Positions 2,555 to 63,919 of a stretch of DNA of 64,000 bases are shown in pieces. Position 1 is the first letter of the stretch; each line of letters begins with the position of its first letter. Source of the stretch: Entomospira culicis (lineage in GTDB: Bacteria; Spirochaetota; Spirochaetia; WRBN01); NCBI RefSeq assembly GCF_028748145.1, contig NZ_CP118181.1:503433-567432 (forward strand), given 5' to 3'. The notes beneath the pieces are model-generated. The model was not told the DNA's origin and searched no databases. It saw only the letters and a program-made list of their open reading frames with translations. The translations under genes were made by a program, and so were the position numbers.

Positions 2555-3079
2555 TTGGCTGCTAAAGATGTGCGCATGAACGAACAAATTCGTGTTGCTA
2601 CGATTCGATTAATCGACGAAAATGGTGAACAGGCCGGCGTCGTTGATACAAAGTGGGCTTTGCAAAAGGCGATGGATTTAGAATTAGATTTAGTGGAGAT
2701 TGCCCCTAAGGCTGTGCCGCCGGTCTGCCGTATTCTAAATTATGGCAAGTATTGTTTTGAGCAAGACAAAAAACAACGTGAAGCAAAAAAAAATCAGAAG
2801 CAGACCAGACTCAAAGAAGTGCGTATGCAACCTAAAATTGATACGCATGACATGGAGTTTAAGATCAAGCATATTCGTCAATTTTTGGGCGAAGGCGACA
2901 AGGTTAAGGTCTCGGTGCGCTTTAGAGGTCGCGAATTTGCTCACACCGAACGTGGCGCTGATGTGCTACAAGAAGTGTTGCATCATTTAGGAGAGGATAT
3001 CTGTATCGTTGAAAAGCCTCCCCTCATGGAGGGTCGCTATATGTCAATGTCCTTGGCTCCTAAATCGGGGAAAAAGTAG
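2555..3079 (+). CDS. infC: Translation initiation factor IF-3
   Basis: 174 residues, the full family length. IF-3 binds the 30S subunit, prevents premature 50S joining and proofreads start codons. Visible are the N-terminal NEQIR and the linker [16 protein letters not shown], then the lysine-rich helix and the C-terminal domain ([29 protein letters not shown]). The start is TTG, placed by the strong AGGAGG at 2545-2550. A non-AUG start is typical for infC because IF-3 discriminates against it and so limits its own synthesis. It heads the conserved infC-rpmI-rplT operon. Confidence 0.96.
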
Positions 3080-3708: not shown

Positions 3709-3768
3709 AATCCAAAATAGGGTGTACTTGCCTAACAAAACATGTGCACCTTTGGGGAGAAGAGAGTT

Positions 3769-4110
3769 ATGGTAACATTAGAACAAGTAGAGCAACTGGA
3801 GGCAAAAGTTCAACAAGTTGTCGCGATTGTCGAGGAGTTGCGTAGTGAAAACGAGCGCATTCGTTTAGAGAAAAAGCAACTTGAGTCTGACTTCAATGTC
3901 TTACGTGAGCGCTATGAGGCAGTTACTTCTAAGGCTGGAGCTTTAGAAGGTGCACAGTTGATGGTGGAAAAGGGCATCATGGATGCTATCGGGTTGCTCG
4001 ATGAGGCTAGTCGGTCGTATGAGGATAATGTGGAGCTCAAAGACGAGCCTACCCCTTACATTACTCCTCAAAATGATGAGCAATCCTCTGGTGAGTCTCA
4101 CCATCATTAG
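3769..4110 (+). CDS. Small coiled-coil protein, ZapB-like
   Basis: 113 residues. Residues 3-55 form a continuous heptad pattern (LEQVEQLEAKVQQVVAIVEE, then LRSENERIRLEKKQLES), i.e. one long coiled coil. The tail is acidic and ends in three histidines. ZapB-type proteins are coiled-coil stabilisers of the division ring. The call rests on the coiled coil and on the ZapA-like gene 6 bases downstream, not on a specific motif. The start at 3769 is preferred over an upstream ATG at 3742 because GGGGAGAAGAGAG precedes it. Confidence 0.6.
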   Translation: MVTLEQVEQLEAKVQQVVAIVEELRSENERIRLEKKQLESDFNVLRERYEAVTSKAGALEGAQLMVEKGIMDAIGLLDEASRSYEDNVELKDEPTPYITPQNDEQSSGESHHH

Positions 4111-4116
4111 TTGTGA

Positions 4117-4407
4117 ATGGATGTTCATCTCTACACGATTCACTTACTTGGGGTGAGTCTTACGGTTAAAACGACGGAGGATATCGACTATCTGCGTAAG
4201 TTAGAAAAATCGTTGTTGGATGCTACGGTTGATGTACAAGAAAATTTGGGCATTCAAGATCCTATTTCGGTAGCAATCATGGCTGGATTTTTTTTGTCTG
4301 ATCAGCTCCATAAAAAAGAGGATCTCTCCGTTGATAGTAGAGAGGAACGGATGATTCAGGATAAAATTTTGCGTATGTCAAAGTTAATGGATCGTATTTT
4401 AAAGTAA
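4117..4407 (+). CDS. zapA: Cell division protein ZapA-like
   Basis: 96 residues. ZapA binds FtsZ and bundles protofilaments at the division ring. The N-terminal half has the family pattern of a short beta sheet (HLLGVSLTVKTTEDIDYLRKL) followed by a helix containing the conserved DPISVAIMAGFFLSDQL segment, and a C-terminal helix. The ribosome site is weak and the gene begins 6 bases after the preceding stop, so translation is probably coupled. Being paired with a ZapB-like coiled-coil gene supports the call. Confidence 0.75.
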   Translation: MDVHLYTIHLLGVSLTVKTTEDIDYLRKLEKSLLDATVDVQENLGIQDPISVAIMAGFFLSDQLHKKEDLSVDSREERMIQDKILRMSKLMDRILK

Positions 4408-4532: not shown

Positions 4533-4565
4533 CCCACTTGAAATAAAGCTTCAAGTTGGATTTTA
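4533..4565 (+). terminator. Intrinsic terminator after zapA
   Basis: CC-ACTTGAA, loop ATAAAGC, TTCAAGT-GG with one mismatch, then ATTTTA. It would end the infC-zapA transcript just before the convergent truA stop codon. The U-tract is short, so efficiency is uncertain. Confidence 0.5.
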
Positions 4566-5327
4566 CTCTTCATCGGCGCTATGGGGTTTTTTGTAACTTA
4601 CTTCTTCCAAGGTTAATCCATGGGGAAGTGCTGTTGGACCGGTCATGGCTTTATCCTTATGTAAAAGCGCAAGCTTGATACGCTGATAGTTTGTCTCAAA
4701 GGCGATCGGTTCGATGATAGTTCCGACAATTTGTCTAACCATATTCATTAAAAATGCATTGCCACGGATATAAAAGTGAATTTGATTATGCACCGCAATA
4801 AATTGCGCACTATAGATGGTGCGAATTTTTGTTTTGTTCATATCTTTGCTGCTACAAAATGCGGTAAAATCATGTGTACCAACAAATAGGTCAGCAAGAA
4901 TATTGATGTTTGATAAGGATAAAGCATGGCGAATAATCGTGATATTGGGTTGCGTTGGCATTAATCCTTCTTGGGCTGCGATGCGGTAACAGTAGAGACG
5001 CGAGGTTGCATCTCGTCGGGGATTAAAGAGAAGCGGAACTTCTTCGCTGTGAAGTACTTGTAAATCGTGAGGAAGCTTAGGATTAAGAATATGTGGATAT
5101 TTGTGTACGGGGATGTTATTTTTTTTCATACTAAAGGCGACAACCTGCCCGTTTGCATGAACGCCAGCATCGGTACGTCCGGCAGCTTGGATGCGTTCGA
5201 CGGGAAAAGGCAACGTACGAATGGCGCGATAGAGCACCGATTCGACGCTACGCCCAATAGGTTGTTCTTGCCATCCACAAAACTGTGCGCCATTGTAGGC
5301 GATAATGAGTTTTATTCTTTGGATAAT
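4563..5327 (-). CDS. truA: tRNA pseudouridine(38-40) synthase TruA, AUU start
   Basis: TruA isomerises uridines 38-40 in the tRNA anticodon arm. The catalytic aspartate sits in AGRTDAGVHA. The first in-frame ATG (5237) would remove the conserved N-terminal strand, which is clearly encoded upstream in the same frame (KLIIAYNGAQFCGWQEQ). No ATG, GTG or TTG exists in that frame before the first stop upstream that I traced. The codon that fits is ATT at 5327, five bases after GGAG (5336-5333), giving a 254-residue protein starting M-I-Q-R-I-K-L. It overlaps the end of the DUF2225 gene by 16 bases, suggesting coupled translation. The enzyme call is firm; the AUU start is an inference, and a sequencing error is the alternative. 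Confidence 0.88.
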   Translation of the reverse strand: MIQRIKLIIAYNGAQFCGWQEQPIGRSVESVLYRAIRTLPFPVERIQAAGRTDAGVHANGQVVAFSMKKNNIPVHKYPHILNPKLPHDLQVLHSEEVPLLFNPRRDATSRLYCYRIAAQEGLMPTQPNITIIRHALSLSNINILADLFVGTHDFTAFCSSKDMNKTKIRTIYSAQFIAVHNQIHFYIRGNAFLMNMVRQIVGTIIEPIAFETNYQRIKLALLHKDKAMTGPTALPHGLTLEEVSYKKPHSADEE

Positions 5328-6187
5328 TCGTGCTCCAACGATTCGACTTCGGCCTTGATTGCAGCATAGAGCGATCGAGCTAAATCTAGGATATCTTTAG
5401 GTTTAGACTTACTTGCCTTGCCACTACCAACAATCTTACTAATGATTGTTTTGACGCTGTTAAGTGAAATAAGGCGTGCTTCTGGATTATTGCGCTGTCC
5501 ATATTTAAATTCAAGTAATCCCGCTAAATATAAGACACCGTCAAAGCCAAAATTATTGTCTTGGTCTGGCCCCTGAAAGCTCAGTTTGGTGAAGCCCTGC
5601 GATGTCGTCTCCTCCAGTTCGCATGAATATCGATAATAAAACGCCGCTTTTCGGTAGAGCATGGCAGAGAGCTGTTGGGACGTCTCTTCTTTTTCTGGAT
5701 CTTCTTGGGCAAGATAGCTGGCAAGCCAAGCGCCACGGAGGGTAACGAGGGCTTGCTTGAATATGGGTATCATCTCTGGGGCGGCTTGCTCGTAGACAAA
5801 GAGCGCGATGAGATAACTGGCGATGCCTTCTTCCAGGCGTCTTGGTTCATCAAAATTGAGTGGCCCTAGAATGGATTCGGCCATTTCATAGGCACGTTTT
5901 TGTTCGTGCATGAGCAATTGTTTACTCATTTTGAGTTTAAAATTTTGCCAATCGGGGGTAAATGCAGTAAAGTGACAGCTAGAGCAGTGTGGTAGGACAT
6001 AGGTTAGGGGATAGATGGTACCAAATTTTTTGGTCTTTTCGTATTTACGGTGAAGCTCATCGGTTAAATCGCCGGCAATGAGTCGTCCAGATCCCGAGAG
6101 GAGCTCTTCTTTGATGACGGAATGACCACAAATGGGGCAAGTTAAGGGGTTTTTGGCAAAGTAGGTAACTTTTGGTATATCGCTCAT
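5312..6187 (-). CDS. DUF2225 protein with two CxxC pairs
   Basis: 291 residues. The N-terminus has CPICGH and, about 50 residues on, CSSC followed by a histidine, the paired zinc-ribbon-type cysteines of DUF2225. The rest is helical with a TPR-like feel (AFYYRYSCELEE). DUF2225 proteins occur in spirochaetes and Firmicutes and have no assigned function. It overlaps ybbR upstream by 4 bases and truA downstream by 16 bases, so it is inside an operon. No signal peptide, so cytoplasmic. Confidence 0.75.
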   Translation of the reverse strand: MSDIPKVTYFAKNPLTCPICGHSVIKEELLSGSGRLIAGDLTDELHRKYEKTKKFGTIYPLTYVLPHCSSCHFTAFTPDWQNFKLKMSKQLLMHEQKRAYEMAESILGPLNFDEPRRLEEGIASYLIALFVYEQAAPEMIPIFKQALVTLRGAWLASYLAQEDPEKEETSQQLSAMLYRKAAFYYRYSCELEETTSQGFTKLSFQGPDQDNNFGFDGVLYLAGLLEFKYGQRNNPEARLISLNSVKTIISKIVGSGKASKSKPKDILDLARSLYAAIKAEVESLEHELSKE

Positions 6188-7134
6188 GACTCTTTCTCTT
6201 TTATTTTAATAGTTATCTGGTTGACAATGATGTTATAATCATCGGGTAGTTGCGCAAGATTATTTAATTCTGGGCGTAAATTATAGAGGCCAGCTTGCGT
6301 AATTTGCTCCATATTGAGCTTGAGGGAGAGGACGTTAGGATTAATGGCATCGAAATTGTTGACTTTACTCTCAATGGTTATCTTTCCATAAAATAGATTA
6401 ATATCTTCCAGTTCAAGATGCTCGGCGAGATTGAGAAGCGTTAAGGGGATTTCCAGTGTACGTTTAAATTGGAATTGGCTAATAATCTCAACTGTAAGCA
6501 TGGTTTGATAATGCGAGAGCTCAATTTTTGGTTGATTAATATGGAGATCGATGGTGGTTTGAAGCGATTTTACTTGGTTACTGATATCGATGGGTTGGGT
6601 GCGAATGATATTGATGCGTTCCAGCATAGAGCGTGGTCCTTTGGCGATAACGCTATCGGGCTCTAGGATGAGCTTGCTCTGCATGAAGCCTTTGGCTGGC
6701 TGTCCTAGAAGCACTGGTTCGATGGGGATTAGCTTATCGATGATGGGTTCTAAGCGAATTTGCACCGTTGCCGGCTCCAAGTATAGACGCAGATCCTTAA
6801 GGTAGTGTCGCTGTACGGTTGGTGCAAGCTGAATGGGGTAGGAGTGTTCCCCCTCCTTGAATTCATCGATGATAAGGGAAAGCGCGATATTTCGTCGTTC
6901 AAATTGAGCGATATCTGCACGTCTTCCCTTTAGCGTTACTTTAACGGTGCTAGCATCTTGCTCTAAAACAACAACATCCTCAGGAAGGGTCAATTGAATG
7001 GGTAGGGAGAACGAGATCTGTTCGGAATCCAGCCCACGGTAGATAAAAAAAAAGAGCGTTGCGAGCAGAACGCTCACAACTTTTGCAAACATATCCTTAA
7101 CGAAAAACTCTTTAAGTAGATTCGCTAATGCCAT
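6184..7134 (-). CDS. YbbR/CdaR-like membrane-anchored protein
   Basis: 316 residues with one N-terminal membrane segment (VVSVLLATLFFFIY, about residues 19-32) followed by repeated YbbR-type beta domains (LPIQLTLPEDVVVLE, VKVTLKGRRADI, and similar blocks near 118, 200 and 270). YbbR/CdaR proteins bind and regulate the diadenylate cyclase CdaA, usually encoded next door. No cdaA is adjacent here. It starts 2 bases after the stop of a secreted-protein gene and overlaps the DUF2225 gene, so it is in a four-gene operon ending in truA. Confidence 0.7.
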   Translation of the reverse strand: MALANLLKEFFVKDMFAKVVSVLLATLFFFIYRGLDSEQISFSLPIQLTLPEDVVVLEQDASTVKVTLKGRRADIAQFERRNIALSLIIDEFKEGEHSYPIQLAPTVQRHYLKDLRLYLEPATVQIRLEPIIDKLIPIEPVLLGQPAKGFMQSKLILEPDSVIAKGPRSMLERINIIRTQPIDISNQVKSLQTTIDLHINQPKIELSHYQTMLTVEIISQFQFKRTLEIPLTLLNLAEHLELEDINLFYGKITIESKVNNFDAINPNVLSLKLNMEQITQAGLYNLRPELNNLAQLPDDYNIIVNQITIKIKEKES

Positions 7135-63259: not shown

Positions 63260-63919
63260 CTATAAAATTTTTGTTGTTTGTTGCCACGAGTCATCTTGGT
63301 CGGGCCAAATATGCGGTGGGGCGAGGATTAAATTTTCGGTAAGATTTAATTCATCGATATATTGTTGCAAAGAGGCTCTAAGCTCTTCGCTAAAGTTAGA
63401 TTTAAAACCTTGTCCCACCGTAAGTTCTTGCAAATTCTCTGGTAGAACGGGTGCTTGTTTCCCGTAATAAACATATCGAAAGGAGAGTAGGACATGTGGC
63501 GAGCTTAGGTCGCGCTTTTTCATTGCTTCATCGTTGCTGTGTACCGAGGGAATGGCTTTGTGTGTAAACGTTGATTGCGCATCTTTTTGATAAACATTGT
63601 CACCAACTTGAAAGATGTGGGGAAGGTTTGGCTCTAATTTGGGTTGTTTTTGTGGGTAGCGAAAAAAATAGTCGTGATGCGAGAGTATCTCTGAAATTTG
63701 TGCAAGATAGAGCACGCGGTTATGTCCGGTTTTGTCTTTTCGCGTTAATCCCACTAACCATAGTGTGTGATTGGGATTGTTTATGTTGTATTTAGCGATA
63801 GCTGTGCGCATCGTCGGCTTGCACCATGGCAAGGAGAGGACTCCCCAGAATGGGTTTGGGGAGTATCCATTATCTTGAGCTACAATATAACTATATACTT
63901 TGTCAATAGAAGCAATCAC
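63260..63919 (-). CDS. Nmad2-type protein (nucleotide modification associated domain 2)
   Basis: 219 residues from GTG at 63919. Family hallmark near residue 10: VYSYIVAQDNGYSPNPFWG followed by LPWCKPTMR, where Nmad2 proteins read SYxVxxDxGxxPNPFWGxxxLxxCKPxxR. Later GDNVYQ, VLLSFRYVYYGKQAP, and LPENLQELTVGQGF also fit. Nmad2 was predicted computationally as part of nucleotide or DNA base modification systems; no activity is established to my knowledge. Its GTG overlaps the stop of the preceding gene (TAGTG) and is 9 bases ahead of TraB. Confidence 0.8.
   Translation of the reverse strand: MIASIDKVYSYIVAQDNGYSPNPFWGVLSLPWCKPTMRTAIAKYNINNPNHTLWLVGLTRKDKTGHNRVLYLAQISEILSHHDYFFRYPQKQPKLEPNLPHIFQVGDNVYQKDAQSTFTHKAIPSVHSNDEAMKKRDLSSPHVLLSFRYVYYGKQAPVLPENLQELTVGQGFKSNFSEELRASLQQYIDELNLTENLILAPPHIWPDQDDSWQQTTKIL

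What the first reader, a model, noticed from the sequence alone, without database searches (positions are those of the whole stretch)
5237..5345. truA appears to start with AUU
The conserved TruA N-terminus (KLIIAYNGAQFCGW) is encoded upstream of the first ATG in the same frame, and no ATG, GTG or TTG is found in that frame upstream as far as I traced. ATT at 5327 lies 5 bases after GGAG and overlaps the DUF2225 gene by 16 bases. AUU starts are rare (known from infC) and are sensitive to IF-3. infC itself is in this window with a UUG start.
Basis: partly seen in the sequence, partly recalled or inferred. Interest (0 to 1): 0.55.

Follow-up and report, generated by a model that had tools for sequence, protein, structure and literature searches.

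The report
truA lacks a standard start codon
In what is probably a mosquito-gut spirochaete, the gene for a tRNA-modifying enzyme has no ATG, GTG or TTG in front of its conserved first part, so it most likely starts at an AUU or the AUC next to it, a rare but already known kind of weak start.

Summary
The truA frame (4563-5396, minus strand, stop to stop) has no ATG, GTG or TTG upstream of GTG 5237. A GTG 5237 product would lack three invariant columns and the first core beta-strand. Of 97 TruA relatives examined, 96 have a canonical start 7-25 residues before the conserved glycine, and the 97th has an ATG at 28. In 464 kb of this genome truA was the only convincing such case among 401 genes.

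The AUU call itself is not settled. AUC 5324, directly after AUU 5327, fits the same GGAG, with spacing nearer this genome's usual value and the commonest N-terminal length in relatives. AUA 5315 is unlikely. The GGAG is ordinary: 26% of random positions pair as well.

Genome sizes point to Entomospira culicis BR151 (inferred). No close relative with truA is held; the only same-family genome lacks truA, DUF2225 and ybbR. So conservation, recent start loss and a base-call error cannot be tested. Near-cognate starts are known, including AUU for pncA in the spirochaete Borrelia burgdorferi. Verdict: real, a new member of a known kind.

The parts
4563..5327 (-). truA coding region if read from AUU 5327 (254 codons plus stop)
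   Evidence: TIGR00071 168 bits against cut-off 142.85; PF01416; model pLDDT 93.8; TM 0.90 to 1dj0
5325..5327 (-). ATT, first candidate start, 5 bases after GGAG, 12 aa before the conserved Gly
   Evidence: sequence
5322..5324 (-). ATC, second candidate start, 8 bases after GGAG, 11 aa before the conserved Gly
   Evidence: sequence
5313..5315 (-). ATA, unlikely candidate start, overlapping the DUF2225 stop (ATAA), 8 aa before the conserved Gly
   Evidence: sequence; no usable Shine-Dalgarno; would cut the first strand
5333..5336 (-). GGAG, Shine-Dalgarno-like
   Evidence: pairing -5.6 kcal/mol with the 16S tail, 64% of 217 ATG genes at least as strong
5235..5237 (-). GTG, first canonical start in the frame, inside the conserved protein (residue 31)
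   Evidence: pairing -3.2 kcal/mol at aligned spacing 13
5312..6187 (-). DUF2225 gene, directly upstream, overlapping truA by 16 bases (from ATT)
   Evidence: PF09986 124.8 bits; same order in other spirochaetes
6184..7134 (-). ybbR gene, overlapping DUF2225 by 4 bases
   Evidence: PF07949; coordinates

Best explanation
truA is an intact gene at the end of a tightly packed ybbR-DUF2225-truA run (operon inferred from the overlaps). Its translation begins at a near-cognate codon, AUU 5327 or the adjoining AUC 5324, placed by the GGAG at 5336-5333, and the initiator tRNA puts fMet there. Shown: no canonical start, conserved N-terminus, plausible spacing, overlap with DUF2225. Inferred: that ribosomes start here, that ribosomes arriving on DUF2225 raise initiation (coupling), and that output is low and IF3-sensitive as at other near-cognate starts. 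Which of the two codons is used is open (my estimate, given this explanation: AUC about 0.5, AUU about 0.4, AUA or more than one codon the rest).
For: No canonical start between 5396 and 5237. Three of 20 invariant and three of 19 nearly invariant TruA columns lie before GTG 5237, as does the first strand, residues 2-11. 96 of 97 relatives have a canonical start 7-25 aa before the Gly, the other at 28. Coding signal ahead of the first canonical start is the strongest of 401 genes scanned. Shine-Dalgarno at a used distance for both codons. A spirochaete precedent for AUU is confirmed by experiment (PMC13398362).
Against: No expression or protein data. The GGAG is ordinary and not extended as at the S. 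aureus near-cognate starts (PMC13009471). No close relative shows the codon conserved. The only same-family genome held lacks truA, so the gene may be dispensable in this lineage and the start could be a recent loss.
Confidence: 0.85

Rival explanations
1. A base-call or assembly error, or a variant private to the sequenced strain, hides an ordinary start.
For: One changed base is enough to make ATG into ATT, ATC or ATA; reads were not available.
Against: If the genome is BR151, it was assembled from Illumina plus Nanopore reads at 88x (PMC11636382). Both DUF2225 and truA read through without a frameshift.
Confidence: 0.06
2. truA has recently lost its start and is on the way to becoming a pseudogene.
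For: The sister genus G001 has no truA, DUF2225 or ybbR, which suggests that TruA can be dispensed with in this family.
Against: The frame is intact to its end with all invariant residues. G001 is in 130 contigs and may have gaps. A near-cognate codon behind GGAG still gives some product (general knowledge).
Confidence: 0.05
3. Translation starts at GTG 5237 and the enzyme is shorter by 30 residues.
For: It is the only canonical start and the Asp of the conserved RTD motif lies downstream of it (that this Asp is catalytic is recalled).
Against: Loses G13, G18, Q22 and the first strand; weak pairing at aligned spacing 13; the lost part is still conserved.
Confidence: 0.02
4. TruA is made by a -1 frameshift from DUF2225 as a fusion.
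For: The frames overlap and truA lies in the -1 frame.
Against: No slippery heptamer seen by eye around 5325-5310; RNA folding there is like shuffles; relatives keep separate starts.
Confidence: 0.01

Closest known systems
Borrelia burgdorferi pncA (BBE22), AUU start
   Same: A spirochaete gene whose conserved N-terminus lies ahead of the first canonical start; annotation cut short; AUU start (PMC13398362, whole text read)
   Different: Plasmid gene of another enzyme; shown by genetics, biochemistry and a structure, while truA rests on sequence only; here AUC competes with AUU
Staphylococcus aureus cvfC1 (AUU), ccpN, infC and citZ (AUA)
   Same: Near-cognate starts; about 10% of AUG output for cvfC1, ccpN and citZ in poor medium (PMC13009471, passages)
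   Different: An extended Shine-Dalgarno is reported for infC, cvfC1 and ccpN; truA here has a plain GGAG and overlaps an upstream gene
Escherichia coli infC and pcnB (AUU)
   Same: Weak AUU start limiting a gene for an RNA-related protein (pcnB: title seen in the reference list of PMC13009471; infC AUU recalled)
   Different: Tested at the bench; infC is autoregulated by IF3 (recalled). The infC of this window starts with TTG

Membership tests
TruA (tRNA pseudouridine(38-40) synthase) | score over the curated cut-off of TIGR00071 | tested here: met
   168 against 142.85 bits
TruA (tRNA pseudouridine(38-40) synthase) | TruA fold and the conserved GRTD motif | tested here: met
   TM 0.90 to 1dj0; R51, T52, D53 invariant
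TruA (tRNA pseudouridine(38-40) synthase) | pseudouridylation of tRNA positions 38-40 | not testable with these tools
   needs RNA analysis
genes started at a near-cognate codon (AUU/AUC/AUA) | no ATG, GTG or TTG ahead of the conserved N-terminus | tested here: met
genes started at a near-cognate codon (AUU/AUC/AUA) | near-cognate codon behind a Shine-Dalgarno at a distance the genome uses | tested here: met
   spacing 5 and 8; 6 and 14 of 112; ordinary strength only
genes started at a near-cognate codon (AUU/AUC/AUA) | codon conserved in close relatives | not testable with these tools
   no close relative with truA held
genes started at a near-cognate codon (AUU/AUC/AUA) | initiation mapped at that codon (N-terminal peptide, ribosome profiling or toeprint) | not testable with these tools
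   needs a bench experiment
AUU starts in particular | AUU rather than another codon is the start | tested here: inconclusive
   AUC 5324 fits as well or better

The most novel reading that the evidence does not exclude
The near-cognate start is fixed in Entomospira and keeps TruA low and under IF3 control, so that pseudouridylation of tRNA anticodon arms follows the level of the initiation factor; the tandem AUU-AUC may give two start points.
Probability: 0.08. Interest if true: 0.5.

Novelty: new member of a known kind. Interest (0 to 1): 0.3.

Why it matters
Gene finders that allow only ATG, GTG and TTG would cut about 30 residues from TruA in this organism or miss the gene, as happened for Borrelia pncA. 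If true it adds a second spirochaete gene known to me, and a housekeeping RNA-modification enzyme, to the short list of near-cognate starts. The two searches aimed at this found no paper on a near-cognate truA start (one unrelated hit for truA with non-canonical start codon; AUU start codon with infC or pcnB, listing only).

Tried and rejected
AUA 5315 overlapping the DUF2225 stop (ATAA): rejected as the most likely start, because it cuts the first strand, has no Shine-Dalgarno at a usable distance and leaves 8 residues before the Gly. Against that rejection: in three relatives (L029, L045, L072) the only canonical start in the 7-25 range is at 8 residues.

Idea that an ancestral ATGA overlap (as at ybbR/DUF2225) became ATTA, lengthening DUF2225 by four codons and turning ATG into ATT: consistent with the sequence, since an ATG at 5327 would place a TGA in the DUF2225 frame, but not supported by distances. 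The distance from the DUF2225 stop to the Gly (20) was the shortest of 25, but L117 has 19 and overlaps are common. Kept as conjecture only.

Frameshift fusion: no slippery site by eye. RNA structure near the start: not different from shuffles. Conservation in G001: not testable, the genes are absent. The genome-contig scan found no close relative among 49 loci. A second truA copy in the genome: none. A first coding scan with a high threshold did not list truA; one search used a lower threshold and dropped segments more than half covered by another gene. estimates that the low threshold would flag 165 of 211 test genes (78%), without the overlap filter. Rows dropped before counts: L031 and L032 as duplicates, L078 without a match over the Gly. 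Alignment A1 used 46 of the 72 relatives that one search listed, plus the window. One search covers the 22 new loci among the 30 best that one search returned as loci, not all 237 matching genomes. A first, cruder survey used a motif match and missed or misplaced several loci; I use it only for L068.

Full report
What was checked. The truA frame on the minus strand is open from 5396 to 4563 (277 codons), and its first ATG/GTG/TTG is GTG 5237. The translation upstream reads ...VGARIIQRIKLIIAYNGAQFCGWQEQPIGRSVES|VLYRAI, the bar marking GTG 5237. In-frame near-cognate codons in the right place are ATT 5327, ATC 5324 and ATA 5315.

What the gene is. TIGR00071 (168 bits, cut-off 142.85) and PF01416 name it TruA. 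A model from 47 aligned sequences has mean pLDDT 93.8 and matches E. coli TruA 1dj0 with TM 0.90. Counted from AUU 5327, residues 2-11 form the first strand, in blocks with mean pLDDT 96-97. G13, G18 and Q22 are invariant in all 47 sequences and Y11, Q20 and Q29 nearly so. GTG 5237 is residue 31, so a GTG start would remove all of these. The genome has one truA.

Organism. G000 has 4 contigs and 1,769,585 bases; C1 has 1,639,587. The remainder, 129,998, equals 98,591 + 28,402 + 3,005, the plasmid sizes given for Entomospira culicis BR151 in PMC11636382 (first of two parts read). Window GC of 43-48% fits the 45.8% given. This identification is inferred. PMC7554043 (passages) gives an ANI of 86% to the two sister species, which I could not reach.

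Relatives. In one search, 76 distinct loci had a match over the conserved Gly, one being the window's own. Of the other 75, 74 have a canonical start 7-25 codons before it, and L068 has an ATG at 28. In one search, 22 of 22 further loci have one. So 96 of 97 relatives fall in the range and the window stands alone. Start positions peak at 11 residues (35 starts), with 10 starts at 12 and 12 at 13. ATC 5324 gives 11, ATT 5327 gives 12, ATA 5315 gives 8. These counts list every canonical codon in the range, not one per gene. All relatives are distant: 29-41% identity to the window.

Which codon. In 464 kb (400 kb sample plus window) 310 long genes begin, by first canonical codon, with ATG 217, GTG 51, TTG 42. 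GGAG-to-start spacing peaks at 6; 5 bases (as for ATT) occurs 6 times and 8 bases (as for ATC) 14 times among 112. Pairing with the genome's own 16S tail gives -5.6 kcal/mol for both; 64% of 217 ATG genes are at least as strong, and so are 26% of 2000 random positions. In aligned spacing, ATT (4) has 13, ATC (7) has 22 and ATA (16) none of 162 genes. This leans mildly to AUC. The native cases I know of are more often AUU (pncA, cvfC1, pcnB). I leave it open.

How unusual in this genome. A codon-usage scan for coding sequence ahead of the first canonical start, ignoring segments mostly covered by other genes, gave five candidates from 401 genes with truA on top. The other four look like ordinary starts or weak scores by eye; two of them read VNILLVDDE and MKRRLITAALPYVNN at their canonical start, which I recall as typical beginnings of response regulators and MetG. 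The scan would flag about 78% (165 of 211) of genes deprived of their start, not counting the overlap filter. About three quarters of the genome was not examined.

Context. DUF2225 lies upstream of truA on the same strand in 24 other loci and in 21 of 22 further ones, so the junction is old in spirochaetes; canonical truA starts there range from gaps to overlaps of up to 32 bases. Ribosomes that translate DUF2225 would arrive at the truA start; that this helps a weak codon is inference. The only same-family genome held, G001 (130 contigs, 95% complete), lacks truA, DUF2225 and ybbR. That may be loss or gaps. 237 of 248 genomes of the class have a truA match.

infC. TTG 2555 follows a strong GAGGAGG. 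G001 infC also opens with TTG at the same place and lacks the ATG that lies seven codons in, at 2576, here. A UUG infC start is therefore probably shared in the family. It gives no evidence of a link to truA.

Verdict. The exact codon is undecided, regulation is speculation, and the kind is known: Borrelia pncA starts with AUU (PMC13398362), and S. aureus cvfC1, ccpN, infC and citZ use AUU or AUA (PMC13009471, passages).

Noticed in passing
window 2555-3079 (+); L084 196-717 (+): infC opens with TTG behind GAGGAGG here, and with TTG at the same place in the sister genus G001, which lacks the in-frame ATG seven codons downstream: a UUG infC start probably shared in the family.
   Followed up: partly
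G001 (whole genome), L084: The only other same-family genome held has no truA, DUF2225 or ybbR match, and gatA-like and other genes follow its infC-rpmI-rplT cluster (gatA named from recall of the sequence).
   Followed up: partly
window 63860-63874 (+): A second GGAG-N5-ATTATC match; its context was not examined.
   Followed up: no
window 4117-4407 and 3742-4110 (+): A ZapA family gene and a ZapB-like coiled-coil gene (below the Pfam cut-off) follow rplT and converge on truA.
   Followed up: no
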